Below, in pieces: positions 4,475-54,625 of a stretch of 64,000 nt of DNA. The stretch spans positions 46,740,353 to 46,804,352 of the forward strand of contig NC_133387.1 of NCBI RefSeq assembly GCF_047511655.1, written 5' to 3'. Source of the stretch: Castor canadensis. Taxonomy: Eukaryota; Chordata; Mammalia; Rodentia; Castoridae. The translations under genes and the position numbers were made by a program. The notes under the pieces were generated by a model. The model saw nothing but the letters and a program-made list of their open reading frames with translations. It did no database searches and was not told the DNA's origin. Position 1 is the stretch's first letter. Each line of letters starts with the position of its first letter.

Positions 4475-6095
4475 ATTCATCTTATTTTCCATGACTTACA
4501 GCTGTAATTAAGAATTTCCACTAAGTAATCTTTCCCTCTGAGGAAAGTCTGTAATTCTTACACATTAGTTTTGCAAACAATCTAAGTCATAGAGAACTGT
4601 GCATTCATAAAATAACTTTTTTTTTTTAATGTGGCTTCTGCTTTCCATGGGATAGACCCAAGAGTTAGTTCCCTCCTTTACTAAGGAGCCCATCTTGTTT
4701 AGTGAGATGATATTCTAGACAGATGGAGATATCCAAAAGCAGCTAACAGACTGGGGCTGCCTAAACTGCTTCTTGAGGGATCAGACACTTCATCCTTCCT
4801 GGCTAGTGGTAGCTTTCTTCTCAGTTCTCATATTTCCTCTCTTCACTTAGCCAAAATACACATTCCTTTCCCTGTCACCACACACGGTTTAACCCCAGGC
4901 CACGATGGCATCTTCCTTAGTCCCTTTGAGGTCAAAGCCAGTGCTGTCCTGTGGACTTATTGACAGTGGGCATTTGGGGACAGCTGTGCCCAAGCCTCCC
5001 AGCAGCAGCCCCTGCACCTTACTTCACAGAGGCCTTGTGTTCTCCCTTGCTCTCTGGGAGGAAGACCCATCCTGCTCAGCCCAGGCCTCCCACCAAGTGT
5101 GTGACTTGGGGCCCTCAACCAAAACAGGATGGCGGTTGGGTGTTGATGATTATTTGACCACCATTCCCTCCTCCTTTCTCCACCTCCAGCTGCCTAATAT
5201 AGCCAAAGGTGTTAGGAGCCCATTCCAAAGAGGTCTGGATTGTTTTGTTTCCAAAACAGGAAAAGGGTGAATGTTTCCTTTTTTTTCCTTTTTTCCTATA
5301 TTGCATTGAAAAGACATGAGGAGTGGGCCCAGGACAAAGAGATAGTTTTGTATCTAGTTTGGAATAAAATACCCAAATGTCCAAATGTCTAAGAACAATT
5401 TTTTTTTTTTTAATGAAAACCTGGGATGAACCACATTGAGGAAAGATGGCCTCATCAGTAAGGCTGGAGTACAACAGCGCCGTCTACTGGACAGAAGACT
5501 AAGCTCATTGATGGCGTTCTATACAATTACCAAGAGGAAAATATGGCTGACACTATGGGCCAGTGCACAGAAAGAGAAGCCATGAAAGAGGACTTGACCC
5601 TTTCTCAACCCAGTGTTTCTGGTAAAAGGCAACTACTATGGGTCACTGCTTCCAAAACAAACTCCAGACCTTGAAAATTGCTCTTAAATTTCAAGAGATT
5701 TACTCCCTATACACTCACCCCCCCATCTACTGTCATTTTTATGAAGCTGCCCCAACCATCAACCTTTATTAAACACCCTATTACCTTGACACCCATACAG
5801 TCATTCTTTCATTCATTCATTAAGCACCAGACCCTGTACTAGGCATTTGGGATATAATAAGTAAGATTCAGCATCCTTAAGCCAGTTGGGTTCAGGTGTG
5901 GGCCTGGGCAGGAACTACTGATCCTAGTCTTCCTCTTTTAATTCTTTTTTTTAACTTCAGTTCCTCTCTGAGCCCTGTTCTCTGTTAAGAGATAAGTGAA
6001 ATACTGGGGTAATATTCATATAAATGAACCAGGCAACTATATTAACCAGGGAATAGATTTCTTCTCCCATATAAATTTGAATCCTTGACTCTTTA
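4475..6095. other. Unassigned sequence with a moderately GC-rich block
   Basis: About 4890-5160 is more GC-rich than its neighbours and carries a 121-codon plus-strand frame from 4905 with no recognised domain. A short decayed repeat head (CATTCATTCATTAAGCACC) is at about 5810. Nothing else is supported. Confidence 0.45.
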
Positions 6096-7070: not shown

Positions 7071-8160
7071 TTATAATGGTAATTTAAAGCTCTACGTTAA
7101 ACTTAAACCTGTGTTCTCATGTGTGAGGAGGGTGAGAGGAGATGGAATAGGGACAGAGTTCACAAATTAATCAAGTTGGTTCTTAAAATAGTGTTGTATT
7201 CTTGAAGTCCAAGTCTAATTCCATTTATAAACATTTATTTCCGATTATAAGCAATTCCAGATTGACAGGTTGTCTCAAGTGAGTATAGTCTCTTCAATTT
7301 TTCATTAAGTGTGTTAATAATAGCTCACAGTGGCATGGCATCTTACAGTCACAAGACAGCTATATCTCTTGTCCCTTCCATTTATTCAGTAGAGAATGAT
7401 GGGTGATTTGAGTATTTGTGGGCAGCTATTAATTAATGCTTATACAGACTTCCTTTATTAAAAGAGTCACATGGTTTCAAACTAAACCAGAAACTCTTGG
7501 TTTATATTTCTAATTTCTGCAAAGGATGTGAAATCTTGAAGTAATGACAGCAGTGTTTTTAGAAATGAGAAACAGTTGTCCACAAATCTCAAATGATGTG
7601 TGTTATGCAGAAGAACCATTTCTGTGGAAGGTACTGTACACTCCTATTTGTGCTAGGATTAGTTTTCCTTCTGGCCTGGAGTGTCTGTGTCCCAGTGCCT
7701 GGCACAGGAACTCTATCATCCACACCGACTCCTGCCTACAGCCATAACTTTCTAGAGATCAAAGTGGGTCCCCTGTTTGTGTTGTCACTATGAGTGACAG
7801 GCCAGCATTGTGCAGTGCAATAGATCAATCCATAGTACAAAAATAATAGTACTTCTTCCTTCACTGGTTGAGTAAAATCAAAGTGATGGTCTCAAACAAC
7901 TTAATTTCATCCTTCAAGGGCAAGTCCATCTTGAACCCCCTGCAACTTAAGAGGGACAGGTTGTGCTCTGATTGCTTCCTGGTTAACTTTTTTACTGCTC
8001 TACATCAACCTGGCCCTATTTTTGTCTGCATCCAATCATCGTTTTAACATGAAGGGTCGTGTATTTTTTAAAAAATAACAATGATAGGAGAGAGGGAATT
8101 ATTCTCGATGAACAAGGAAAAGGGATCTACATTCCTTGAATTTTAAAATAGTCATAAACC

Positions 8161-12365: not shown

Positions 12366-12386
12366 GATTAAAGGTCCTGTTTAGAC

Positions 12387-12795
12387 ACCTAAAAAACTAG
12401 CTAGCATTTGTTGCCCTTAACGCAGAGAAATTAAAGCAGATACCTTAAAGCAACTGAGGCCAATAGGAAAAGGGGACCAGGAACTAGAGAAAAGGTTAGA
12501 TCAAAAAGAATTAACCTAGAAGGTAACACCCACGCACAGGAAATCAATGTGAGTCAATGCCCTGTATAGCTATCCTTATCTCAACCAGCAAAACCCCTTG
12601 TTCCTTCCTATTATTGCTTATACTCTCTCTACAACAAAATTAGAGATAAGGGCAAAATAGTTTCTGCTGGGTATTGAGTGGGGGGAGCGGGAGGGGGTGG
12701 AGTGGGTGGTAAGGGAGGGGGTGGGGGCAGGGGGGAGGGATGAACCAAGCCTTGTATGCACATATGAATAATAAAAGAAAAATGAAAAAAAAAAA
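12387..12795 (+). mobile_element. 5'-truncated L1 3' end
   Basis: A 409-bp fragment of the young L1 3' UTR starting at ACCTAAAAAACTAGC and ending in an A-tail. It is flanked by the exact 18-bp duplication TAAAGGTCCTGTTTAGAC (12369-12386 and 12796-12813). It retains the G-rich tract and shows no A-to-G bias, so it serves as a nearby unedited comparison for the copy at 13478. Confidence 0.95.
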
Positions 12796-12900
12796 TAAAG
12801 GTCCTGTTTAGACTTGTATCGTCTTGATTCTCTGTCCACATGGTAGAAGTTGACTCCTAAAATAAAACATCATAATGGAAAGGCATTTGGAAATTATGAA

Positions 12901-13200
12901 TTTTTTTGGCAGTATTGGGGCTTGAACTCAACACTTGCTAGGCAGGTGCTCTTCCACTTGAACCATACTCCCAGCCCTTTTTGCTTTAGTTTTTCAGATA
13001 GGGTCTCACGTTTTTGCCTAGATCAACCTGGACCACAGTCTTCCTAGTTATGCCTCTTGCCTCACTGGGATGACAGGAGTGGACAACCACACCCAGATCA
13101 TTTGTACAGAGGGGGTCTTATTAACTTCTTGCCCAGGCTGGCTTCAAACCACAATCCTCCCAAGTAGCTGATATAGGCATGAGCAATCACTCCTGGCCTA
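12901..13200 (-). repeat. Three-module composite SINE (B1-like, B1-like, ID-like), reverse
   Basis: In plus-strand order: reversed ID-like head (12906-12978, GGGGCTTGAACTCAAC), reversed B1-like unit (about 12979-13105, AGATAGGGTCTCACG), and a second reversed B1-like unit (to 13200, CCCAGGCTGGCTTCAAACC). The architecture recurs at 36451-36770 and 39164-39490. Confidence 0.8.
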
Positions 13201-13477
13201 TAATTTTTTTTAAATTGCTTTCATTATTTTATTTTTAGGAAAAACTAGAACATAAATCAACCTTCCCAAAATTAGATATTAGAATAGATTACCTTATTTT
13301 TTTATGAGTTTATTCTCCCCTCAAAAAGGAAATGGTTTAGTATATGATTGTGTTGGTGAGCACAGCCCCAGCCTCTGACTGACCAAAGAAACTAACTTTT
13401 CAAAACAAGTAGCAGGCTAGAAAGTTCAAGAACAGACGTTTAAGGCCTTTCACACCCATTAAATTGTCCTTGGTGAT

Positions 13478-13870
13478 TGGTTGCCCTTAATGCAGAGAAA
13501 CTGGAGCAGATGCCTTGAAGCAACTGAGGCCAGTGGGAGGGGGGGAACAGGTACTGGAGAAGGGGTTGGATCGGAAAGAGTTGACCTGGAGGGTGGCACC
13601 CACGCACAGGAAATCTGTGTGAGTCAATGCCCTGTATGGCTGTCCTTGTCTCGGCCAGCAGGAACCCTTGTTCCTTCCTATTGTTGCTTGTACTCTCTCT
13701 GCAACAGGATTGGAAATGGGGGCAGGGTGGTTTCTGCTGGGTGTTGAGGCTGGGGGAGAGGGAGGGGGCGGAGTGGGTGGTGAGGGAGGGGGTGGGGGCA
13801 GGGGGGAGAGGTGGGCCGGGCCTTGTATGCACATATGAATAGTGAAAGAGAAAGAAAAAAGAAAAAAAAA
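13478..13870 (+). mobile_element. 5'-truncated L1 3' end, A-to-G hypermutated
   Basis: A 393-bp L1 3' UTR fragment inserted with its own duplication (ATTGTCCTTGGTGAT at 13463-13477 and 13871-13885) and an A-rich tail. Aligned by eye to the 3' UTRs at 24360-24735, 12415-12795 and 45330-45710, it shows about 51 A-to-G differences and only about three other substitutions. About 47 of the changed A bases follow T or A, three follow C and one follows G, while about 25 A bases after G are nearly all unchanged. The flanking DNA looks normal. The pattern fits adenosine-to-inosine editing of L1 RNA before reverse transcription. Confidence 0.9.
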
Positions 13871-14145
13871 ATTGTCCTTGGTGATGGATAAATCTTCCAT
13901 ATTTGTCAAATAGTCATCTTTATGCTTTATTTTATGAGCAGTATTTAAAGATCTGAGAGTCAACAATGATGTGAAAGTTTTCTTCACAGGACTTTCTTGT
14001 TCTTGTATTCTGTTTGTGGCAGAATACAAGGACTTGGAAAGAAAGGATATGCATACAGAGGCAAAAAGATTTCAAATCTACAGACTTTAGGAACTATATT
14101 GGGAGGTTGAGCTTTTTTAAAAAAAAAGTAAATGTTTTTAAATTT

Positions 14146-19706: not shown

Positions 19707-19771
19707 ACAAATTACAACTCTAACCAATAGCCAGTAGAAGCTATAATATGCAAAACAAACTCTTTAAGTCA
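19707..19771. repeat. 65-bp target duplication of the truncated L1, left copy
   Basis: Begins ACAAATTACAACTCTAACC and ends CTCTTTAAGTCA. It matches 24736-24800 base for base except two adjacent positions (ATATG here, ATACT there). Confidence 0.9.
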
Positions 19772-19773
19772 CT

Positions 19774-20373
19774 GACTCCATCAAAAGACCAAACTTGAGA
19801 ATCATGGGCATCGAAGAAGGAGAAGAGGTGCAAGCGAAAGGAATGCGTAATATATTCAACAAAATAATAACGGAAAATTTCCCAAATCTAGAGAAAGATA
19901 TTCCCATACAAATGCAAGAGGCCTCCAGGACACCAAACAGACCAGATCAAAATAGAACTACTCCATGACATATCATCATTAAAACAACAAGTTCAGAAAC
20001 TAAGGAAAGAATATTGAAGGCTGTAAAAGAGAAAAAACAAGTAACATACAAAGGTAAACCCATCAAAATCACAGCAGACTTCTCAACAGAAACATTAAAA
20101 GCAAGAAGAGCATGGGGTGAGATCTTCCGGGCACTGAATGAAAATAACTTCAACCCCAGGATACTCTACCCAGCAAAGCTATCATTCAAAATAGATGGAG
20201 CAATAAAAGTCTTCCATGATAAGCAGAAACTAAAACAATATGTGACCACAAAGCCACCATTACAAAAGATTCTGCAAGGGATCCTGCACACAGAAAGTGA
20301 CACCCAACTTAACCATGAAAAGGCAGGCAGCACCAAACCACAGGATAAGAAAAAGCAAGACAGTAGAGAGTAA
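19774..20373 (+). pseudogene. L1 ORF1 fragment (RRM and C-terminal domain)
   Basis: The frame opens at the insertion junction with DSIKRPNLRIMGIEEGEE. It is interrupted by a TGA at 19966-19968, where the minus-strand copy has CGA (arginine). That is the CpG-to-TpG change typical of methylated DNA. From 20014 the frame is open to the normal ORF1 stop, through KGKPIKITADFSTETLKARR and YPAKLSFKIDG. Without the coiled coil it could not form the usual trimer. Confidence 0.9.
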
Positions 20374-20423
20374 CATCAAGTTAGGTACACACAATCAAAC
20401 CTTCAAATAACTAAGACAACTAA

Positions 20424-22799
20424 ATGGCAGGAATCACCACATACCTATCAGTACTAACACTTAATGTTAATGGACTTAATTCACCCATCAAAAGACAGCG
20501 TTTGACAAAATGGATTAAAAAAGAAGATCCAACAATTTGTTGCTTACAGGAGACTCATCTCACCGACAGAAATAAGCATAGGCTTAGGATGAAAGGCTGG
20601 AAGAAGATTTACCAAGCCAATGGCCCCCGAAAACAAGCAGGAGTAGCAATACTTATCTCTGACAAAGTAGACTTCAAACCTACATTGATCAAACGAGATA
20701 AAGAAGGACATTCCATACTAATAAAAGGGGAAATAGACCAAAAGGAAATAATAATCATCAATTTGTACGCACCCAATGTCAACGCACCCAATTTCATCAA
20801 ACATACCCTGAAAGACCTAAAAGCATATATAAACGCCAACACAGTGGTTGTGGGAGACTTTAACACTCCATTATCATCAATAGATAGGTCATCCAAACAA
20901 AAACTCAATAAAGAAATCCAAGATCTAAAATATGCAATAGATCAAGTGGACCTAGTAGATGTCTACAGAACATTTCATCCAACCTCTACACAATATACAT
21001 TCTTCTCAGCAGCCCATGGAACCTTCTCCAAAATAGATCATATCCTAGGGCACAAAGCAAGTCTCAGCAAATATAAGAAAATAGAAATAATACCATGCAT
21101 ACTATCTGACCACAATGCAGTAAAAGTAGAACTCAACAACAAAAGTAAAGACAAAAAACATGCAAACAGCTGGAAACTAAATAACTCATTACTTAATGAA
21201 GAGTGGATCATCGATGCAATAAAAGAGGAAATTAAAAAGTTCCTGGAAGTCAATGAAAATGAAAACACAACCTACCGGAACCTATGGGACACAGCTAAGG
21301 CAGTCTTGAGAGGAAAGTTTATAGCCATGAGTGCATATATTAAAAAGATTGAAAGATCCCAAATCAATGACCTAATGAAACATCTCAAACTCCTAGAAAA
21401 ACAAGAACAAACAAATCCCAAAACAAATAGAAGGAGAGAAATAATAAAAATAAGAGCTGAAATCAACGAAATAGAAACCAAAAAAACCATACAAAGAATT
21501 AATGAAACAAAAAGTTGGTTCTTTGAAAAACTAAACAAGATCGATAGACCCCTGGCAAACCTGACTAAAATGAGGAGAGAAAAAACCCAAATTAGTAGAA
21601 TTAGGAATGCAAAAGGGGAGATAACAACAAACACCATGGAAGTCCAGGAAATCATCAGAGACTACTTTGAGAAGCTATATTCAAATGAATTTGAAAATCT
21701 TAAAGAAATGGACAGATTTCTAGATACATATGATCATCCAAAACTGAACCAAGAGGAAATTAATCACCTGAAAAGACCTATAACACAAAATGAAATTGAA
21801 GCAGCAATCAAGAGTCTCCCCAAAAAGAAAAGTCCAGGACCTGATGGATTCTCTGCTGAATTCTATCAGACCTTTAAAGAACTGATACCAACCCTCCTTA
21901 AACTGTTCCATGAAATAGAAAGGGAAGGAAAACTGCCAAACACATTTTATGAAGCCAGTATTACACTTATCCCAAAACCAGGCAAAGACACCTCCAAAAA
22001 GGAGAACTATAGGCCAATCTCCTTAATGAACATTGATGCAAAAATCCTCAACAAAATAATGGCAAATCGAATTCAGCAACACATCAAAAAGATTATTCAC
22101 CAGGACCAAGTAGGCTTCATCCCAGGGATGCAGGGGTGGTTCAACATACGAAAATCAATAAATGTAACAAACCACATTAACAGAAGCAAAGACAAAAACC
22201 ACTTGATCATCTCAATAGATGCAGAAAAAGCCTTTGATAAGATCCAACATCATTTCATGATAAAAGCTCTAAGAAAACTAGGAATAGAAGGAAAGTTCCT
22301 CAACATTAGAAAAGTTATATATGACAAACCTACAGCCAGCATTATACTTAACGGAGAAAAATTAAAACCATTCCCTCTAAAATCAGGAACCAGACAAGGA
22401 TGCCCACTATCTCCACTCCTATTCAACAAAGTACTGGAATTCCTAGCCAGAGCAATTAGGCAAGAAGAAGGAATAAAAGGAATACAAATAGGTAAAGAAA
22501 CTGTCAAAATATTCCTATTTGCAGACGACATGATCCTATACCTTAAAGACCCAAAAAACTCTACTCAGAAGCTTCTAGACATCATCAATAGCTATAGCAA
22601 GGTAGCAGGATATAAAATCAACATAGAAAAATCATTAGCATTTCTATACACTAACAATGAGCAAACGGAAAAAGAATGTATGAAAACAATTCCATTTACA
22701 ATAGCCTCAAAAAAAAATCAAATACCTAGGTGTAAACCTAACAAAAGATGTGAAAGACCTCTACAAGGAAAACTATACACTTCTGAAGAAAGAGATTGA
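20424..22799 (+). pseudogene. L1 ORF2 protein, endonuclease and reverse transcriptase part
   Basis: A 791-residue frame starting [17 protein letters not shown], 50 bp after the ORF1 stop. The endonuclease residues (E43 in CLQETH, GDFN, IDHILGH, SDH) and the reverse transcriptase motifs ([25 protein letters not shown]) are all present. It has lost one codon relative to the minus-strand copy near 21880 (KELIPTLL instead of KEELIPTLL). It also carries a one-base gain in the A run at 22709-22717 (nine A, where the other copy has eight), which throws the frame off after about residue 763. The last 28 or so residues are out-of-frame sequence. Confidence 0.94.
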
Positions 22800-24240
22800 G
22801 GAAGACTATAGAAAGTGGAGAGATCTCCCATGCTCATGGATTGGTAGAATCAACATAGTAAAAATGTCTATACTCCCAAAAGTAATCTACATGTTTAATG
22901 CAATTCCCATCAAAATTCCAATGACATTCATCAAAGAGATTGAAAAATCTACTGTTAAATTTATATGGAAACACAAGAGGCCACGAATAGCCAAGGCAAT
23001 ACTCAGTCAAAAGAACAATGCAGGAGGTATCACAATACCTGACTTCAAACTATATTACAAAGCAATAATAATAAAAACAGCATGGTACTGGCACAAAAAC
23101 AGACATGAAGACCAGTGGAACAGAATAGAGGATCCAGATATGAAGCCACACAACTATAAGCAACTTATCTTTGACAAAGGAGCTAAAAATATACGATGGA
23201 GAAATAGCAGCCTCTTCAACAAAAACTGCTGGGAAAACTGGGTAGCAGTCTGCAAAAAACTGAAACTAGATCCATGTATATCATCCTATACCAAGATTAA
23301 CTCAAAATGGATCAAGGATCTTAATATCAGACCCCAAACTCTTAAGTTGATACAAGAAAGAGTAGGAAATACTCTGGAGTTAGTAGGTATAGGTAAGAAC
23401 TTTCTCAATGAAACCCCAGCAGCACAGCAACTAAGAGATAGCATAGATAAATGGGACCTCATAAAACTAAAAAGCTTCTGTTCATCAAAAGAAATGGTCT
23501 CTAAACTGAAGAGAACACCCACAGAGTGGGAGAAAATATTTGCCAACTATACATCAGACAAAGGACTGATAACCAGAATATACAGGGAACTTAAAAAACT
23601 AAATTCTCCCAAAACTAATGAACCAATAAAGAAATGGGCATGTGAACTAAATAGAACTTTCTCAAAAGAAGAAATTCAAATGGCCAGAAAACACATGAAA
23701 AAATGCTCACCATCTCTAGCAATAAAGGAAATGCAAATTAAAACCACGCTAAGATTCCACCTCACCCCTGTTAGAATAGCCATCATCAGCAACACCACCA
23801 ACAACAGGTGTTGGCGAGGATGCGGGGAAAAAGGAACCCTCTTACACTGTTGGTGGGAATGTAGACTAGTACAACCACTCTGGAAAAAAATCTGGAGGCT
23901 ACTTAAAAAGCTGGACATCGATCTACCATTTGATCCAGCAATATCACTCTTGGGGATATACCCAAAAGACTGTTACTCCAGAGGCACCTGCACATCCATG
24001 TTTATTGCGGCACTATTCACAATAGCCAAGTTATGGAAACAGCCAAGATGCCCCAGCACTGACGAATGGATTAAGAAAATGTGGTATCTATACACAATGG
24101 AATTTTATGCAGCCATGAAGAAGAATGAAATGTTATCATTCCCTGGTAAATGGATGGAATTGGAGAACATCATTCTGAGTGAGGTTAGCCTGGCTCAAAA
24201 GACCAAAAATCGTATGTTCTCCCTCATATGTGGACATTAG
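22750..24240 (+). pseudogene. L1 ORF2 protein, C-terminal part after the frameshift
   Basis: This is the continuation of ORF2 in the +1 frame after the A-run expansion, from about [18 protein letters not shown] to the natural stop after SLICGH. It includes the thumb-like region and the cysteine motif [18 protein letters not shown]. The true continuation begins at about 22718; the listed start is only the first ATG in the frame. Confidence 0.92.
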
Positions 24241-24735
24241 ATCAAGGGCAAACACAACAAGGGGATTGGACTTTGAGTACATGATAAAAGCGAGAGCACA
24301 CAAGGGAGGGGTGAGGATAGGTAAGACACCTAAAAAACTAGCTAGCATTTGTTGCCCTTAATGCAGAGAAACTAAAGCAGATACCTTAAAGCAACTGAGG
24401 CCAATAGGAAAAGGGGAACAGGAACTAGAGAAAAGGTTAGATCAAAAAGAATTAACCTAGAAGGTAACACCCACGCACAGGAAATCAATGTGAGTCAATG
24501 CCCTGTATAGCTATCCTTATCTCAACCAGCAAAAACCCTTGTTCCTTCCTATTATTGTTTATACTCTCTCTACAACAAAATTAGAGATAAGGGCAAAATA
24601 GTTTCTGCTGGGTATTGAGGTGGGGGGAGAGGGAGGGGGCGGAGTGGGTGGTACAGGAGGGGGTGGGGGCAGTGGGGAGAAATGAACCAATCCTTGTATG
24701 CACATATGAATAATAAAAGAAAAATGAAAAAAAAA
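24241..24735 (+). other. L1 3' UTR with G-rich polypurine tract
   Basis: About 495 bp after the ORF2 stop. It ends with a G-rich purine tract (about 24600-24685, many GGGG or longer runs), then TGTATGCACATATGAATAATAAAAG and the A-tail. The same module is present in every young L1 copy in this window. G runs of this type in mammalian L1 3' UTRs can fold as G-quadruplexes; folding is inferred here. Confidence 0.8.
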
Positions 24736-24800
24736 ACAAATTACAACTCTAACCAATAGCCAGTAGAAGCTATAATACTCAAAACAAACTCTTTAAGTCA
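24736..24800. repeat. 65-bp target duplication of the truncated L1, right copy
   Basis: Lies directly after the A-tail and repeats 19707-19771 with two mismatches. It is much longer than the usual 7-20 bp L1 duplication. Confidence 0.9.
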
Positions 24801-24959
24801 ATGCAAAGTGCTAAGATGAACCCTTTCTTTAAGGAGTCTTGTTTTCAATGAACGGATTAGAGAAAGCAAAAATGCCCACAAAATACGATGACTACAGAGT
24901 TAGGTCTGGTTGAGAGGAACATGAAAAGCTTGATAAAAATGCACATTTAGACAAGTCTT

Positions 24960-41239: not shown

Positions 41240-42900
41240 CTCCCCCTTTCCCTGCTGAAAAAAACCACTCTGCTGAATTCTGTACCTACTATTCCTTTGC
41301 AATGTTATATGGTTTTACTGCCTAACACTGTAGCTTTATCTGTTTGGAGGTCTGTATAATAGAATCATATCATAAGTGTTCTTCTGTGTATTAGTTATTG
41401 TTGTTGTTTCACATTGTGTTTTTGAGATTCCACCACATAAACATCAGCACTTTTGAGCTGTATAGTATTCCCCTGTACATATATTACAAGGTTTACCAGT
41501 TCTTATGTTGATTCATGTTTTACCTCTTCCTTTCCAAATCAAATCCTGCTGTTTAGTGATTAGCAGAATAGTGAGGGAGAGTTGGCTTTTTTGAGTCGGT
41601 TCTTCCTGACTCAAGTGGAATACCTCAAATGTTTGTCATTAGTTACAGTGCTGCCTCCCAGACTGAAATATACATCTATATCCTATTAAGGAAATATTCA
41701 TAGATTCCTATTTAATTGAGTGTTTTTGTCAAAATCATTGCAGAATTTTGGCAGGTGCCTGTTCATCATTTATGGAGATGATGGTATGATTTTTCTAATC
41801 AGCTCCTTCAGTTTAATAATTTTAAAATATATTACTGTGATTGATTCATGGGAAAAGCTCCAAATGATTCTTTAACCTTACAATTTATTGCTAGAGTTTA
41901 TTTAGGAGTTTGGCATCAGTATTTGCAAGTCAAATTGGCCTACAGCCACCCCCACCTTTTATTAAAATTTGTCAGATTTTGGAATCAATGTCATAGTCAC
42001 ATCATAAAAATGATTTGGATAGTACTTTTTTATATTCCATGGGCTGTCTAAACAGTGCTAGCATTATCTTCCCCTGAAAGGTTTAGCATAACTCTGCAGA
42101 AACCAATAGGCCTGAAACTTTTCTTTGTTGTTTTTTCTATTTCTTCTAAGGAGATTATTTTGTTTAGGTTTGCTGTCTTCTGATGTCAGGTTGAATGTAG
42201 TATACTTTTCTACATAAAAGTTATTTTTTCTTCCAGGTTTTTAAATATATTTTCACAGAGCTAAGTGAAGTTTTCTTATGATTCTTTTAATTTCCTGTTA
42301 ATTTTTATTTCTCTACTATCATTTCTTCTATTAGATTTTTGTCCCTACTTTTAATTAGCTTACCTACTGTCTTACCTATTTATTGCTGCTCTAAAGAACT
42401 TTTAATTTAATATTGAAACTATATTTCCTATATTCTAGATCACTAGTCACTTTGTTATTAAATTCTTCCATTTGCTTTGCTTCATTTTTTTTTTCAGCCA
42501 AATGCCCAAACTATTAGTTTTTCAGTCTTTGGGTTCGCCTAATAAAATAATTTTTAAAACTACCAAGTATGTTCTTTAGAGGTTGCTTTGGTCTCTATCT
42601 CATATGTCTGGATATTTGGTATTCTCAGTATTGTTCTTTTGTATTAATTTTATGATTTAACTTTGTTTTTTGACTCAGAAGTTGTTTTAAAGGGAACTTT
42701 TAAAATTCTACATGAAAGAAATTTTCCCCATGAATTACTTTGCAATTTATAATTCATATCATTGTATCACATAATGTTGATTGTAACATTTCTATATTTT
42801 CAGTTTATTGAGTTTTTCTTTTAACTTACTTAACATAGAGATGATTCTGGTGAATATTCAGAAGTAACTGAAAAGATACATATTCTATGTTCAGGGTAAA
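41240..42900 (-). mobile_element. Degraded old L1 ORF2 region, reverse
   Basis: About 1.6 kb of T-rich sequence whose reverse complement resembles decayed L1 ORF2 (for example TAGAATCATATCATAAG, GATTCCACCACATAAAC, and the ATTTCTTCTA and TTTTGACTCAGAAGTTG blocks). Stops occur in all frames and there are likely several fragments. Identification rests on word-level similarity only. Confidence 0.5.
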
Positions 42901-42904
42901 ATTT

Positions 42905-43094
42905 TCGAGATGCATGTGTGTTTGTGTGCGGTGTGTGGTGTGTGTGTGCGGTATGTGTGTGGTGGGTGTGTGTGGCATATGGTATGTGTGTGTGGTATGT
43001 GTGTGGTGTGCGTGTATGTGTGTATGTATTGTGGTATGTGTGTACGTGTGTGGTATGTGTGTATGTGGGGTGTATGATGTGTGTGTGGTATGGG

Positions 43095-43144
<50 letters not shown>
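42905..43144. repeat. TG-rich minisatellite ending in a pure (TG)n
   Basis: Imperfect units such as GTGTGTGGTATGTGTGTG to about 43096, then about 24 pure TG units to 43144. It abuts the solo MaLR LTR. The frames on both strands here (Val/Cys-rich and Thr/His-rich) are repeat translations, not genes. Confidence 0.95.
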
Positions 43145-43146
<2 letters not shown>

Positions 43147-43448
43147 TGTGTCCTGAGTTCAATCCCCAGCTTGGTACCATCGGGAGGTGATTGTAACTTT
43201 AAGAGGTGAGGACCACTGGGAGGTCTTCAGGTCATTTGGGAATGTTTCTAGGTCATGAGACAAGAGGCTTTGCTCTGCCACACACTCCCCACATTATTGT
43301 ATCTCCACCCCTGCCAGATGCCCAAAAACAATGGGGTCAACTGACCATGGACTGAAACCTCCAAAACTGTAAGCCAAAATAAACCTTTTCTCTTTGAAGG
43401 TTATTATTTCAAGCATTTGTTACAGAATCAGAAAGCTGATTAACTGAG
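43145..43448 (+). repeat. Solo MaLR LTR, left end lost in a TG repeat
   Basis: The recognisable part starts at TTCAATCCCCAGCTTGG and runs through GACCATGGACTGAAACC and CCAAAATAAACC to CTGATTAACTGA. The 5' end merges with the TG minisatellite at 42905-43144. Confidence 0.7.
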
Positions 43449-45239: not shown

Positions 45240-45712
45240 ACATGGGATTGGACTATGAGCACATGATAAAAGCGAGAGCACACAAGGGAGGGGTGAGGAT
45301 AGGTAAGACACCTAAAAAATTAGCTAGCATTTGTTGCCCTCAACGCAGGGAAACTAAAGCAGATACCTTAAAAGCAACAGAGGCCAATAGGAAAAGGGGA
45401 CCAGGAACTAGAGAAAAGGTTAGATCAAAAAGAACTAACCTAGAAGGTAACACCCACGCACAGGAAATCAATGTGAGTCAATGCCCTGTATAGCTATCCT
45501 TATCTCAACCAGCAAAAACCCTTGTTCCTTCCTATTATTGCTTATACTCTCTCTACAACAAAATTAGAAATAAGGGCAAAATAGTATCTGCTGGGTATTG
45601 AGGGGGTGGGGGGGAGAGGGAGGGGGCAGAGTGGGTGGTAAGGGAGGGGGTGGGGGCGGGGGGAGAAATGACCCAAGCCTTGTATGCACATATGAATAAT
45701 AAAAGAAAAAAT
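45240..45712 (+). mobile_element. 5'-truncated L1 3' end
   Basis: Young-family L1 3' UTR starting in GGGATTGGACTATGAGC, which follows the ORF2 stop in the longer copies. It runs through the G-rich tract to AATAATAAAAG and an A-rich end. The duplication is ATATATTTTACT (45228-45239 and 45717-45728), and the right side has grown by extra TA units. It is inserted just past the end of an old L1M element. Confidence 0.88.
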
Positions 45713-47135: not shown

Positions 47136-47391
47136 TATATTTCTGTATAGCTATCCTTAACTCAACTGGCAAAACACTTTGTCTTCCTTATGATGCTTAT
47201 GTCTTTTCTTCAACAAAATTAGTGATAAGGGCAGAACAGGTTCTGCCTGGAAGTGAGTGGGGGAGGAGAGAAGAGGGTGGGGGAGGGAGGCAGGAGGGAG
47301 AAATGACCCAAAAAATGTATGCACATGTGAATAAATGAATAATTTAAAAATTTTTTTTTTAATTTCCCTAGAAGAAATAAAAAAAAAGAAA
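47136..47391 (+). mobile_element. Short older L1 3' end
   Basis: About 250 bp matching the L1 3' UTR from TATAGCTATCCTTA onward but with scattered changes of all kinds, including in the G-rich tract, so it is an older insertion. The 13-bp duplication AGAAAATGTTCTG flanks it (47123-47135 and 47392-47404), with a mixed A/T tail inside the right copy. Confidence 0.85.
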
Positions 47392-49046: not shown

Positions 49047-49555
49047 TTTTATTTTATTTATTTTTTTTTCATTTTTCTTTTATTATTCATATGTGCATAC
49101 AAGGCTTGGTTTATTTCTCCCCCCTGCCCCCACCCCCCCTCCCTTACCACCCACTCTACCCCCTCCCGCTCCCCCCCTCAATACCCAACAGAGACTATTT
49201 TGCCCTTATCTCTAATTTTGTTGTAGAGAGAGTATAAGCAATAATAGGAAGGAACAAGGGGTTTTGCTGGTTGAGATAAGGATAGCTATACAGGGCATTG
49301 ACTCACATTGATTTCCTGTGCGTGGGTGTTACCTTCTAGGTTAATTCTTTTTGATCTAACCTTTTCTCTAGTTCCTGGTCTCCTTTTCCTATTGGCCTCA
49401 GTTGCTTTAAGGTATCTGCTTTAGTTTCTCTGCATTAAGGGCAACAAATGCTAGCTAGTTTTTTAGGTGTCTTACCTATCCTCACCCCTCCCTTGTGTGT
49501 TCTCGCTTTTATCATGTGCTCATAGTCCAATCCCCTTGTTGTGTTTGCCCTTGAT

Positions 49556-50344
49556 CTAATGTCCACATATGAGGGAGAACATACGATTTTTGGTCTTTTG
49601 AGCCAGGCTAACCTCACTCAGAATGATGTTCTCCAATTCCATCCATTTACCAGCGAATGATAACATTTCATTCTTCTTCATGGCTGCATAAAATTCCATT
49701 GTGTATAGATACCACATTTTCTTAATCCATTCGTCAGTGCTGGGGCATCTTGGCTGTTTCCATAACTTGGCTATTGTGAATAGTGCCGCAATAAACATGG
49801 ATGTGCAGGTGCCTCTGGAGTAACAGTCTTTTGGGTATATCCCCAAGAGTGGTATTACTGGATCAAATGGTAGATCGATGTCCAGCTTTTTAAGTAGCCT
49901 CCAAATTTTTTTCCACAGTGGTTGTACTAGTCTACATTCCCACCAACAGTGTAAGAGGGTTCCTTTTTCCCCGCATCCTCGCCAACACCTGTTGTTGGTG
50001 GTGTTGCTGATGATGGCTATTCTAACAGGGGTGAGGTGGAATCTTAGTGTGGTTTTAATTTGCATTTCCTTTATTGCTAGAGATGGTGAGCATTTTTTCA
50101 TGTGTTTTCTGGCCATTTGAATTTCTTCTTTTGAGAAAGTTCTGTTTAGTTCACATGCCCATTTCTTTATTGGTTCATTAGTTTTGGGAGAATTTAGTTT
50201 TTTAAGTTCCCTGTATATTCTGGTTATCAGTCCTTTGTCTGATGTATAGTTGGCAAATATTTTCTCCCACTCTGTGGGTGTTCTCTTCAGTTTAGAGACC
50301 ATTTCTTTTGATGAACAGAGCTTTTTAGTTTTATGAGGTCCCAT
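49556..50344 (-). pseudogene. L1 ORF2 protein, C-terminal part after the frameshift
   Basis: This frame continues ORF2 from [16 protein letters not shown] to the natural stop after SLICGH. It holds the cysteine-rich C-terminal segment [18 protein letters not shown], the CX3CX7HX4C-type motif of L1 ORF2p thought to bind nucleic acid. It overlaps the upstream frame by about 57 bases around the one-base deletion. The whole ORF2 spans about 1273 codons, normal for mammalian L1. No other break is visible in this part. Confidence 0.93.
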
Positions 50345-53300
50345 TTATCTATGCTATCTCTTAGTTGCTGTGCTGCTGGGGTTTCATTGAGAAAGTTCTT
50401 ACCTATACCTACTAACTCCAGAGTATTTCCTACTCTTTCTTGTATCAACTTAAGAGTTTGGGGTCTGATATTAAGATCCTTGATCCATTTTGAGTTAATC
50501 TTGGTATAGGATGATATACATGGATCTAGTTTCAGTTTTTTGCAGACTGCTACCCAGTTTTCCCAGCAGTTTTTGTTGAAGAGGCTGCTATTTCTCCATC
50601 GTATATTTTTAGCTCCTTTGTCAAAGATAAGTTGCTTATAGTTGTGTGGCTTCATATCTGGATCCTCTATTCTGTTCCACTGGTCTTCATGTCTGTTTTT
50701 GTGCCAGTACCATGCTGTTTTTATTATTATTGCTTTGTAATATAGTTTGAAGTCAGGTATTGTGATACCTCCTGCATTGTTCTTTTGACTGAGTATTGCC
50801 TTGGCTATTCGTGGCCTCTTGTGTTTCCATATAAATTTAACAGTAGATTTTTCAATCTCTTTGATGAATGTCATTGGAATTTTGATGGGAATTGCATTAA
50901 ACATGTAGATTACTTTTGGGAGTATAGACATTTTTACTATGTTGATTCTACCAATCCATGAGCATGGGAGATCTCTCCACTTTCTATAGTCTTCCTCAAT
51001 CTCTTTCTTCAGAAGTGTATAGTTTTCCTTGTAGAGGTCTTTCACATCTTTTGTTAGGTTTACACCTAGGTATTTGATTTTTTTTGAGGCTATTGTAAAT
51101 GGAATTGTTTTCATACATTCTTTTTCCGTTTGCTCATTGTTAGTGTATAGAAATGCTAATGATTTTTCTATGTTGATTTTATATCCTGCTACCTTGCTAT
51201 AGCTATTGATGATGTCTAGAAGCTTCTGAGTAGAGTTTTTTGGGTCTTTAAGGTATAGGATCATGTCGTCTGCAAATAGGGATATTTTGACAGTTTCTTT
51301 ACCTATTTGTATTCCTTTTATTCCTTCTTCTTGCCTAATTGCTCTGGCTAGGAATTCCAGTACTATGTTGAATAGGAGTGGAGATAGTGGGCATCCTTGT
51401 CTGGTTCCTGATTTTAGAGGGAATGGTTTTAATTTTTCTCCGTTAAGTATAATGCTGGCTGTAGGTTTGTCATATATAGCTTTTATAATGTTGAGGAACT
51501 TTCCTTCTATTCCTAGTTTTCTTAGAGCTTTTATCATGAAATGATGTTGGATCTTATCAAAGGCTTTTTCTGCATCTATTGAGATGATCAAGTGGTTTTT
51601 GTCTTTGCTTCTGTTAATGTGGTTTATTACGTTTATTGATTTTCGTATGTTGAACCACCCCTGCATCCCTGGGATGAAGCCTACCTGGTCGTGGTGAATA
51701 ATCTTTTTGATGTGTTGCTGAATTCGGTTTACCATTATTTTGTTGAGGATTTTTGCATCAATGTTCATTAAGGAGATTGGCCTATAGTTCTCCTTTTTGG
51801 AGGTGTCTTTGCCTGGTTTTGGGATAAGTGTAATACTGGCTTCATAAAATGTGTTTGGCAGTTTTCCTTCCCTTTCTATTTCATGGAACAGTTTAAGGAG
51901 GGTTGGTATCAGTTCTTCTTTAAAGGTCTGATAGAATTCAGCAGAGAATCCATCAGGTCCTGGACTTTTCTTTTTGGGGAGACTCTTGATTGCTGCTTCA
52001 ATTTCATTTTGTGTTATAGGTCTATTCAGGTGATTAATTTCCTCTTGGTTCAGTTTTGGATGATCATATGTATCTAGAAATCTGTCCATTTCTTTAAGAT
52101 TTTCAAATTTATTTGAATATAGGTTCTCAAAGTAGTCTCTGATGATTTCCTGGACTTCCATGGTGTTTGTTGTTATCTCCCCTTTTGCATTCCTGATTCT
52201 ACTAATTTGGGTTTTTTCTCTCCTCATTTTAGTCAGGTTTGCCAGGGGTCTATCGATCTTGTTTATTTTTTCAAAGAACCAACTTTTTGTTTCATTAATT
52301 CTTTGTATGGTTTTTTTGGTTTCTATTTCGTTGATTTCAGCTCTTATTTTTATTATTTCTCTCCTTCTATTTGTTTTGGGATTTGCTTGTTCTTGTTTTT
52401 CTAGGAGTTTGAGATGTATCATTGGGTCATTGATTTGGGATCTTTCAATCTTTTTAATATATGCACTCATGGCTATAAACTTTCCTCTCAAGACTGCCTT
52501 AGCTGTGTCCCATAGGTTCTGGTAGGTTGTGTTTTCATTTTCATTGACTTCTAGGAACTTTTTAATTTCCTCTTTTATTGCATCGATGATCCATTCTTCA
52601 TTAAGTAATGAGTTATTTAGTTTCCAGCTGTTTGCATGTTTTTTGTCTTTACTTTTGTTGTTGAGTTCTACTTTTACTGCATTGTGGTCAGATAGTATGC
52701 ATGGTATTATTTCTATTTTCTTATATTTGCTGAGGCTTGCTTTGTGCCCTAGGATATGATCTATTTTGGAGAAGGTTCCATGGGCTGCTGAGAAGAATGT
52801 ATATTGTGTAGAGGTTGGATGAAATGTTCTGTAGACATCTACTAGGTCCACTTGATCTATTGCATATTTTAGATCTTGGATTTCTTTATTGAGTTTTTGT
52901 TTGGATGACCTATCTATTGATGATAATGGAGTGTTAAAGTCTCCCACAACCACTGTGTTGGCATTTATATATGCTTTTAGGTCTTTCAGGGTATGTTTGA
53001 TGAAATTGGGTGCGTTGACATTGGGTGCGTACAGATTGATGATTATTATTTCCTTTTGGTCTATTTCCCCTTTTATTAGTATGGAATGTCCTTCTTTATC
53101 TCGTTTGATCAATGTAGGTTTGAAGTCTACTTTGTCAGAGATAAGTATTGCTACTCCTGCTTGTTTTCGGGGGCCATTGGCTTGGTAAATCTTCTTCCAG
53201 CCTTTCATCCTAAGCATATGCTTATTTCTGTCAGTGAGATGAGTCTCCTGTAAGCAACAAATTGTTGGATCTTCTTTTTTAATCCATTTTGTCAAACGGT

Positions 53301-53373
53301 GTCTTTTGATGGGTGAATTAAGTCCATTAACATTAAGTGTTAGTACTGATAGGTATGTGGTGATTCCTGCCAT
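50287..53373 (-). pseudogene. L1 ORF2 protein, main part (endonuclease and reverse transcriptase)
   Basis: This 1028-residue frame covers most of L1 ORF2p, which nicks DNA and reverse-transcribes L1 RNA at the nick. The apurinic-endonuclease-like domain (about 1-235) has N14, E43 in CLQETH, Y115, D145 and N147 in GDFN, D205, D229 and H230. The reverse transcriptase (about 500-770) has D600 in [21 protein letters not shown] near 659-669, and FADD with D702 and D703. Each of these matches the usual L1 numbering. The start is the ATG 50 bp after the ORF1 stop and reads [17 protein letters not shown], a standard ORF2 start. A missing A near 50319 (compared with the plus-strand copy) shifts the frame after about residue 1018. 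The last ten or so residues of this frame are out-of-frame sequence. Confidence 0.95.
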
Positions 53374-53423
53374 TTAGTTATCTTAGTTGTTTGAAGGTTT
53401 GATTGTGTGTACCTAACTTGATG

Positions 53424-54625
53424 TTACTCTCTACTGTCTTGCTTTTTCTTATCCTGTGGTTTGGTGCTGCCTGCCTTTTCATGGTTAAGTTGGGTGTCAC
53501 TTTCTGTGTGCAGGATCCCTTGCAGAATCTTTTGTAATGGTGGCTTTGTGGTCACATATTGTTTTAGTTTCTGCTTATCATGGAAGACTTTTATTGCTCC
53601 ATCTATTTTGAATGATAGCTTTGCTGGGTAGAGTATCCTGGGGTTGAAGTTATTTTCATTCAGTGCCCGGAAGATCTCACCCCACGCTCTTCTTGCTTTT
53701 AATGTTTCTGTTGAGAAGTCTGCTGTGATTTTGATGGGTTTACCTTTGTATGTTACTTGTTTTTTCTCTCTTGCAGCCTTCAATATTCTTTCCTTAGTTT
53801 CTGAACTTGTTGTTTTAATGATGATATGTCGTGGAGTAGTTCTATTTTGATCTGGTCTGTTTGGTGTCCTGGAGGCCTCTTGCATTTGTATGGGAATATC
53901 TTTCTCTAGATTTGGGAAATTTTCCGTTATTATTTTGTTGAATATATTACGCATTCCCTTCGCTTGCACCTCTTCTCCTTCTTTGATGCCCATGATTCTC
54001 AAGTTTGGTCTTTTGATGGAGTCGGTGAGTTCTTGCATTTTCTTTTCACAGGTCTTGAGTTGTTTAATTAGTAGTTCTTCAGTTTTTCCTTTAATTACCA
54101 TTTCATCTTCAAGTTCTGAGATTCTGTCTTCTGTTTGTTCTATTCTGCTGGATTGGCCTTCCGTTTTGTTTTGCAGTTCTGTTTCGTTCTTTTTTCTGAG
54201 GTTTTCATATCCTGGCTGTTTTCTTCTTTATTGTTGTCTATTTTTGTCCTGAGTTCATTTATCCATTTATTCATTGTGTTTTCTCTTTCATTTTGGTGTT
54301 TATACAGTGCTTCTATGGTTTCCTTTATTTCTTCTTTTGCTTTTTCAAATTCTCTATTTTTATTGTCTTGGAATTTCTTGAGTGTCTCCTGTACATTTTG
54401 GTTGACCCTATCCAGTATCATCTCTATAAAATTCTCATTGAGTACTTGTAGTATGTCTTCTTTTAAATTATTCTTGTAGGCTTCATTGGGTCCTTTGGCA
54501 TAGTTTATCTTCATTTTGTTGGAGTCTGGCTCTGAGTTTCTGTTCTCTTCATTCCCCTCTGGTTCCTGTACTAATTTTTTGCTGTGGGGAAACTGGTTTC
54601 CTTGTTTTTTCTGTCTTCCTGTCAT
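53424..54625 (-). pseudogene. L1 ORF1 protein (RNA-binding chaperone), one frameshift
   Basis: L1 ORF1p is a trimeric coiled-coil RNA chaperone that coats L1 RNA. The chosen start is the ATG at 54625 reading MTGRQKKQGNQFPHSKK. The same frame is open for about 60 more codons upstream, but those are hydrophobic and lie in the 5' UTR. Residues of roughly 50-190 are charged and helical as expected for the coiled coil. The RRM begins near KRPNLRIMGIKEGEE, and the C-terminal domain contains KGKPIKITADFSTETLKARR and RILYPAKLSFKIDG. The span is about 400 codons, longer than human (338 aa) or mouse (about 357-371 aa) ORF1p. Two overlapping frames are needed: the first ends at 54140 and the second has its first ATG at 54101. 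The frame change fits loss of one base in the A6 run at 54190-54195 (T on the plus strand). Confidence 0.9.

What the first reader, a model, noticed from the sequence alone, without database searches (positions are those of the whole stretch)
13478..13870. L1 copy carrying an A-to-G hypermutation pattern with ADAR-like context
Aligned by eye to four normal relatives in this window, this fragment shows about 51 A-to-G changes and about three other substitutions in under 400 bp. Ordinary decay would give mostly CpG and C-to-T/G-to-A changes. About 47 of the changed A bases follow T or A, three follow C and one follows G, while about 25 A bases after G stay A. That is the known 5'-neighbour preference of ADAR enzymes. 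The fragment has its own 15-bp target duplication and A-tail, so an edited L1 RNA appears to have been reverse-transcribed into the genome. Known retroelement DNA editing (APOBEC) gives G-to-A on the sense strand, the opposite pattern.
Basis: partly seen in the sequence, partly recalled or inferred. Interest (0 to 1): 0.88.

Follow-up and report, generated by a model that had tools for sequence, protein, structure and literature searches.

The report
Edited L1 RNA copied into genome
A mobile element's RNA was heavily rewritten by an RNA-editing enzyme and then pasted into the chromosome, leaving a heritable trail of A-to-G changes; other copies in the same genome show the same scar, including one in which both sides of the edited RNA hairpin were pasted in together.

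Summary
At 13478-13868 a truncated L1 3' end, flanked by a 17-bp target-site duplication, carries 52 A-to-G changes among 58 substitutions; its four relatives in the window carry 8-13 substitutions with 0-3 A-to-G each. Changed A's follow T 21/28, A 27/55, C 3/21, G 1/26, the ADAR order.

No copy examined shares its set of G's. Independently edited copies exist: four of the 39 further copies fetched and one more young copy by pattern.

The strongest evidence is on contig C1 (L100). One insertion, bounded by one 13-bp duplication, holds a sense L1 3' end, an inverted L1 fragment and a 3' transduction with its own A-tail. Both arms carry A-to-G on the transcript strand. In the sense arm 41 of 110 A's changed within the span of the other arm and 2 of 105 elsewhere. 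I read this as an edited RNA hairpin reverse-transcribed into the genome.

I conclude ADAR editing of L1 RNA before target-primed reverse transcription. Nine older copies sharing about 20 G's may descend from one edited founder; this is less certain. The hairpin's source locus could not be searched (tool unreachable).

The parts
13478..13868 (+). L1 3' end (truncated 3' UTR plus A-tail) with 52 A-to-G changes
   Evidence: alignment to four relatives; limits from the duplication
13461..13477 (+). left copy of the 17-bp target-site duplication AAATTGTCCTTGGTGAT, preceded by TT (TT/AAAT, close to the L1 endonuclease site; site preference recalled)
13869..13885 (+). right copy of the target-site duplication, directly after the A-tail
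12387..12795 (+). unedited control L1 3' end, independent insertion with its own 18-bp duplication TAAAGGTCCTGTTTAGAC (12369-12386, 12796-12813)
19707..24803 (+). long L1 copy between direct repeats (30 bp exact, the limit of that search; 65 of 69 positions alike); its 3' UTR at 24347-24740 is a control and the window copy closest to the edited one outside A>G (9 other differences)
49061..54048 (-). part of a long L1 copy in inverted orientation, 98.4% identical to 19749-24735; ORFs at 50287-53373 and 53424-54227 match L1 ORF2 and ORF1 domains in Pfam; 3' UTR used as control
45244..45710 (+). fourth unedited control L1 3' end
47143..47334 (+). older, about 73% identical L1 3' end used to polarise the changes

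Best explanation
An L1 transcript (or a read-through transcript ending in an L1 3' end) formed double-stranded RNA over its 3' UTR with an antisense L1 fragment. An ADAR enzyme converted about 40% of its adenosines to inosine, choosing A's after U or A. The L1 machinery then reverse-transcribed the edited RNA into the chromosome by target-primed reverse transcription, and inosine was read as G. Shown here: the strand-specific A>G burst, its ADAR-like neighbour order, its place inside an insert with a target-site duplication, bursts in other copies with different site sets, and, at one other locus, changes in both arms of an inverted pair limited to the paired span. Inferred: the enzyme (ADAR; which of the two active ones stays open), and the partner strand of the window copy itself, which is not preserved.
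For: 52 of 58 changes A>G, 5' order T>A>C>G. Derived state. Duplication and A-tail. Five other young copies with A>G bursts: L042 35 of 38 substitutions, L009 25/31, L063 25/32, L019 15/22, L012 11/18, with partly overlapping site sets and 12, 4, 7, 4 and 0 private sites (with another consensus and trimming, gives 39/42, 26/32, 15/22, 11/18 for the four it holds). Without the window copy, 95/233 A's after T/A are changed against 16/136 after C/G, p = 1e-9. A 5.65-kb L1 match (L052) has 16 of 17 changes A>G in one 200-nt stretch of the 3' UTR and 12 of 66 elsewhere; a 1.5-kb copy (L051) has its burst only in the last 500 nt or so. Hairpin insertion L100: sense arm 41/110 A's changed inside the span of the antisense arm, 2/105 outside, p = 5e-12; antisense arm 37/61 A's changed on the same transcript strand, T 20/24, A 10/15, C 4/12, G 3/10. 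One 13-bp duplication, AAGATCACTGCGA at L100:4696-4708 and 5890-5902, encloses both arms, 218 nt of other sequence with AATAAA, and an A-run.
Against: The window copy carries no inverted partner, so its double strand is inferred. ADAR activity was not measured. Some T/A-preceded A's near both ends stay unchanged. Of the other young edited copies only L051 has a clear duplication (16 bp); L049 and L052 have 10-bp candidates, L063 a weak one and L050 none. One normal-looking L1 insertion (L098) shows the mirror pattern, T>C on the L1 sense strand (18 of 22), which editing of the sense RNA cannot give. In L100 the sense arm is unedited over part of the paired span, its neighbour bias is weaker (T 13/26, A 18/40, C 5/21, G 5/23), and the antisense arm has 21 other differences from the young consensus, 11 from the older one.
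Confidence: 0.92

Rival explanations
1. The copy belongs to a distinct L1 subfamily whose source had G at these sites; no editing of this RNA is needed.
For: Nine older copies do share a set of about 20 G's, so G-rich subfamilies exist. The window copy has G at 15 of the 25 sites found against the young consensus. Only 40 of 4060 candidates were scored.
Against: None of the 39 other copies shares more than 22 of its 51 sites. It carries 1 of 27 of the older set's other diagnostic bases. It has only 6 changes besides A>G, like its young relatives.
Confidence: 0.03
2. An error-prone DNA polymerase (Pol eta, which favours A after T or A, or Pol iota, which puts G opposite T; both recalled) copied the sense strand during second-strand synthesis of the insertion.
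For: Pol eta errors also favour A's after T or A (recalled from somatic hypermutation).
Against: 52 of 54 changes at A are to G; Pol eta also gives many A>T and A>C (recalled; at an assumed 55% the chance is 1e-11). About 40% of A's changed. It does not explain why changes in L100 stop at the paired span and appear in both arms on one strand.
Confidence: 0.02
3. ADAR deaminated deoxyadenosine in DNA, in an RNA:DNA hybrid at or after insertion, rather than adenosine in the RNA.
For: ADARs act on DNA in DNA:RNA hybrids in vitro (review PMC12925331, passages seen). L098 shows changes on the cDNA strand.
Against: In the first cDNA strand it would give T>C on the L1 sense strand, the opposite of the window copy. 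In L100 the changes follow self-pairing of the transcript, not the whole insert.
Confidence: 0.03
4. Ordinary decay, sequencing error or misassembly.
For: Not examined at read level.
Against: Four relatives in the same window and 35 of the 39 further copies have 0-3 A>G each; the duplication and tail are intact; ordinary decay is mostly C>T and G>A (recalled).
Confidence: 0.01

Closest known systems
ADAR hyper-/ultra-editing of inverted-repeat RNAs (Carmi, Borukhov and Levanon 2011, PMC3197674; passages seen)
   Same: Clusters of A>G, G depleted 5' of the site, need for inverted repeats able to pair.
   Different: That work finds editing in cDNA of RNAs, against unedited genomic DNA. Here the edited sequence is itself genomic. 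Its ultra-edited sites are poorer in TAG and AAG, called ADAR2 motifs there; here TAG (20/30) and AAG (20/32) are among the most changed triplets.
A-to-G hypermutated avian retroviruses RAV-1 and ALV (Felder 1994; Hajjar and Linial 1995; not held or not read, described in PMC8586724 and PMC12925331, passages seen)
   Same: Edited retroelement RNA; nearly 50% of A's changed in an inverted-repeat region, as the review puts it.
   Different: Exogenous retroviruses with LTRs; here a non-LTR L1 inserted by target-primed reverse transcription and present in a genome assembly.
APOBEC DNA editing of retrotransposons (Zaranek 2010 PMC2873906; Lindic 2013 PMC3880073; passages seen)
   Same: Clustered one-type mutations left in retroelement copies by a deaminase.
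   Different: Those are G>A on the sense strand from deamination of cDNA. Lindic screened G>A with C>T as control, so A>G copies were outside the screen as described in the passages seen.
ADAR1 restriction of L1 (Orecchini 2017; seen only as described in PMC5974252 and PMC12925331, passages)
   Same: Links ADAR1 to the L1 ribonucleoprotein.
   Different: Reported as not depending on editing; here editing is recorded in inserted copies.

Membership tests
L1 retrotransposon insertion by target-primed reverse transcription | target-site duplication (about 7-20 bp, range recalled) | tested here: met
   17 bp
L1 retrotransposon insertion by target-primed reverse transcription | A-tail at the 3' end and 5' truncation | tested here: met
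L1 retrotransposon insertion by target-primed reverse transcription | sequence of an L1 with ORF1/ORF2 in the same genome | tested here: met
   long copies share this 3' UTR; ORFs match Pfam RVT_1, Exo_endo_phos, Transposase_22
ADAR-edited RNA | one-type A>G changes on one strand | tested here: met
   52/58
ADAR-edited RNA | 5' neighbour T/A over C over G | tested here: met
   pooled six copies T 60/116, A 80/195, C 15/97, G 5/84
ADAR-edited RNA | excess of G 3' of the site | tested here: not met
   no significant 3' effect in the window copy (p = 0.56); pooled six copies G 43/118, A 65/199, T 33/99, C 17/72. I treat this as a weak feature, not a defining one (recalled)
ADAR-edited RNA | double-stranded substrate | tested here: inconclusive
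   partner not preserved for the window copy; inverted pair present in hairpin insertion L100
ADAR-edited RNA | loss of editing without ADAR | not testable with these tools
   needs an experiment
APOBEC-edited retroelement | G>A excess on the sense strand | tested here: not met
   1 G>A of 58
Distinct L1 subfamily | same diagnostic bases in many copies | tested here: not met
   0 of 39 other copies share more than 22 of 51 sites; the catalogue is incomplete (40 scored of 4060 candidates)

The most novel reading that the evidence does not exclude
In this genome ADAR editing of L1 RNA is a recurrent germline mutator that writes A-to-G bursts into new insertions. It has done so through a whole RNA hairpin (L100). 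At least once the edited L1 stayed mobile and founded a lineage: nine older copies share about 20 derived G's clustered in the same 3' UTR segment. In at least one case (L098) the cDNA strand itself appears to have been edited during reverse transcription.
Probability: 0.42. Interest if true: 0.93.

Novelty: new variant of a known kind. Interest (0 to 1): 0.86.

Why it matters
RNA editing is normally thought to leave no trace in DNA. These insertions look like DNA fossils of edited RNA. They suggest that heavily inosine-containing L1 RNA can still be reverse-transcribed and inherited, they map past double-stranded L1 RNA in the germ line, and they make it possible to ask genome by genome how often editing feeds back into DNA. 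Where edits follow the paired segment, a fossil also records which part of the transcript was double-stranded. If the shared-G set really descends from an edited founder, RNA editing has also supplied variation on which an L1 lineage continued to amplify.

Tried and rejected
Rejected: APOBEC editing (1 G>A of 58); CpG decay; gene conversion from the older shared-G copies (1 of 27 of their other diagnostic bases); DNA-polymerase error (see rivals).

Tried without result: a pattern scan of IMG/VR for host copies (none). The Rfam scan gave three tRNA hits only, probably SINE-related (my guess). A tree of the older copies, with the columns where the consensus has A and a shared-G copy has G removed, does not make the nine shared-G copies a clade, so their common descent rests on the shared G's and on the haplotype 5381C/5390T (9 of 9; 7 of 30 A-type copies). 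The 5'-neighbour test for their founder is 16/49 after T/A against 6/33 after C/G, p = 0.20, not significant, with the seven C/T-haplotype copies as reference; against all 30 A-type copies 17 of 20 changed A's follow A or T.

Sampling: one search scored 40 of 4060 candidates ranked by likeness to the edited copy, which favours edited copies. The 35 copies that I call normal also show more A>G (47) than T>C (5), G>A (14) or C>T (29), as that ranking would give. The 30 A-type copies were likewise ranked by likeness to an A-type copy, and one of them (L066) is that query itself; 10 of the 40 scored were not fetched. No genome-wide frequency can be given; the count of unedited copies did not complete. 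The T>C pattern was meant as a negative control; of its 4 hits 2 are not in this L1 region, 1 is the antisense arm of L100 and 1 is L098. Duplications of the older shared-G copies were sought in four (L056, L059, L060, L065) and found in two (L059, L060, each with one mismatch).

Literature: all ten full-text searches are used. None listed a paper whose title or start of abstract reports A-to-G edited L1 copies in a genome; I read passages of six papers only, and most subscription papers are not held. Carmi 2011 (Nat Commun), Hajjar and Linial 1995, and a third paper asked for by DOI (recalled as the Knisbacher and Levanon LTR study) are not held, so I cannot say the finding is unpublished.

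Full report
Observation. The insert at 13478-13868 is a truncated L1 3' end in a genome of 2.81 Gb (B1-like SINE sequence suggests a rodent, by recall). Four other copies of the same 3' UTR lie in the window. Against their majority the insert has 58 substitutions, 52 of them A>G; the four copies, each against the other three, have 11, 8, 9 and 13 with 1, 3, 0 and 1 A>G. Changed A's follow T in 21 of 28 cases, A in 27 of 55, C in 3 of 21 and G in 1 of 26. Such a run of one-type changes is not chance (one search gives 6e-41 against the control share of A>G). The old fragment at 47143 shows A at 26 of 34 covered sites and G at 4, so most of the G's are new in this copy.

The insertion. A 17-bp duplication, AAATTGTCCTTGGTGAT, flanks the copy and its A-tail. 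It reads as one target-primed insertion. A neighbouring L1 copy 0.7 kb upstream (12406-12799) has its own 18-bp duplication and no excess of A>G. A SINE 0.3 kb upstream (12934-13163) shows no excess of G either. So the changes go with the insert, as expected if the RNA was changed before it was copied; the unique flanks themselves have no reference here. L1 identity rests on long copies at 19707-24803 and 49061-54048 that share this 3' UTR and on Pfam matches of ORFs of the second.

Is it a subfamily? The genome search found 4060 candidates and scored 40: this copy at 100%, one at 88%, the rest at 84-86%. I fetched the 39 others and aligned them. Thirty-five of the 39 and the four window controls have 0-3 A>G each. 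Four have bursts of their own: L042 39 of 42 substitutions, L009 26 of 32, L019 15 of 22, L012 11 of 18. They share 22, 20, 10 and 10 sites with the window copy and, in that comparison of five, have 16, 4, 4 and 0 private sites; the window copy has 14. The sets differ, so I take these as separate events on a common set of favoured sites; L012, with no private site, is the weakest case. The sample was ranked by likeness to the edited copy and is enriched for edited ones; even the 35 normal copies show 47 A>G against 5 T>C.

Footprints. In L052 the match to the L1 runs 5.65 kb; 16 of 17 changes in one 200-nt stretch of the 3' UTR are A>G, against 12 of 66 in the rest. In L051 (the same place as L042) a 1.5-kb copy has its burst only in the last 500 nt or so. 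Editing therefore covers only part of the transcript, as expected if only that part was double-stranded.

Pattern searches. A pattern asking for G at three favoured sites found 13 places; the same pattern read backwards found none. One is the window copy, one is L009, one (L063) is a further young edited copy (25 A>G of 32), one (L058) is an older copy with 24 A>G of 44. The other nine are older copies that share their G's. Pooled over six young copies, within their footprints, changed fractions are T 60/116, A 80/195, C 15/97, G 5/84. Leaving out the window copy, A's after T or A are changed 95/233 and after C or G 16/136, p = 1e-9. Which ADAR is open: there is no clear 3' effect, but TAA, TAG and AAG are the most changed of the well-sampled triplets, and Carmi et al. 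call TAG and AAG ADAR2 motifs (PMC3197674, passage).

The hairpin. A mirror pattern (T>C at three sites) gave four places. One, C1:3042415, opened the key locus (L096, L100). One insertion between two copies of AAGATCACTGCGA (L100:4696-4708 and 5890-5902) contains a sense L1 3' end (L1 5016-5644), a short A-rich spacer, an antisense L1 fragment (about 5170-5475), 218 nt of other sequence with AATAAA at 5856, and an A-run. It reads as a retrocopied read-through transcript. On the transcript strand the sense arm has 41 of 110 A's changed within the span of the antisense arm and 2 of 105 outside it (p = 5e-12); the antisense arm has 37 of 61 changed, with T 20/24, A 10/15, C 4/12, G 3/10. In the sense arm the 5' order is weaker (T 13/26, A 18/40, C 5/21, G 5/23). 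The antisense arm also has 21 other differences from the young consensus; against the older consensus 42 of 53 differences are of the edited type, so it probably came from an older L1. Changes in both arms on one strand, limited to the paired span, are what editing of a folded RNA gives; I know of no DNA process that gives this. Part of the paired span in the sense arm is unedited. The source locus was asked for many times and never answered.

The older shared-G copies. Nine copies have G at 12-18 of up to 18 clustered sites, with different 5' ends where the copy starts inside the fetched stretch and, in two of the four examined, different duplications (L059, L060). Compared with 30 older A-type copies their consensus differs at 32 sites, 20 of them A>G; 18 of the 24 differences between L1 5310 and 5560 are A>G against 2 of 7 between 4900 and 5309. 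The 30 A-type copies have G at 0-4 of these 20 sites, but they were ranked by likeness to an A-type copy. All nine carry 5381C/5390T, found in 7 of 30 A-type copies with 0-2 G's. The simplest reading is one edited L1 that went on to amplify. Against it: the neighbour bias is not significant with the closest reference (p = 0.20), and a tree without the A>G columns does not group them. I hold this at about even odds.

An exception. L098 (C20:57031984) has an ordinary duplication (AAATGCACAAATCTT) and a tail on the L1 sense strand, but shows T>C on that strand, 18 of 22 changes; read on the other strand, 17 of the 18 changed A's follow T or A (17/30 against 1/28, p = 9e-6). Editing of the sense RNA cannot do this. 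Deamination of the cDNA strand in the RNA:DNA hybrid could; a review says it is unknown whether this happens for retroviruses (PMC12925331, passages).

Judgement. ADAR editing of inverted-repeat RNA and A-to-G hypermutated avian retroviruses are known. Heritable L1 insertions made from edited RNA, with the hairpin preserved, were not described in any passage I read; the held library lacks key subscription papers, so I call this a new variant of a known kind and make no claim of a first report.

Noticed in passing
L098/L101, C20:57031984 region (L101:4759-5037): L1 insertion with the mirror signature, T>C on the sense strand (18 of 22) and ADAR-like neighbours on the cDNA strand; candidate for DNA-strand editing in the RNA:DNA hybrid.
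   Followed up: partly
L053, L055, L056, L057, L059, L060, L062, L064, L065: Nine older L1 copies share about 20 derived G's clustered in the 3' UTR; possible lineage founded by an edited L1.
   Followed up: partly
L051, about 7405-7485 of the reverse complement (C5:25903200-25911200): The edited copy L042/L051 continues past its A-tail into a piece resembling an old U6 pseudogene (U6 identity recalled) and a second A-run, all inside one 16-bp duplication AGAAAGGTTTCTCCAA: a 3' transduction or template switch.
   Followed up: no
window 19749-24735 (+) and 49061-54048 (-): Two 5-kb L1 stretches, 98.4% identical, in inverted orientation 24 kb apart; a common transcript could form long double-stranded RNA.
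   Followed up: no
window 19707-19775 and 24736-24804: The direct repeats around the long L1 are 65 of 69 positions alike, far longer than a usual L1 target-site duplication.
   Followed up: no
window 12387-12795 and 13478-13868: Two independent same-orientation L1 3' ends inserted about 0.7 kb apart, each with its own duplication.
   Followed up: partly
window 42826-43226: Long TG/CA-type repeat stretch, seen as histidine/threonine- and cysteine/valine-rich ORF translations.
   Followed up: no
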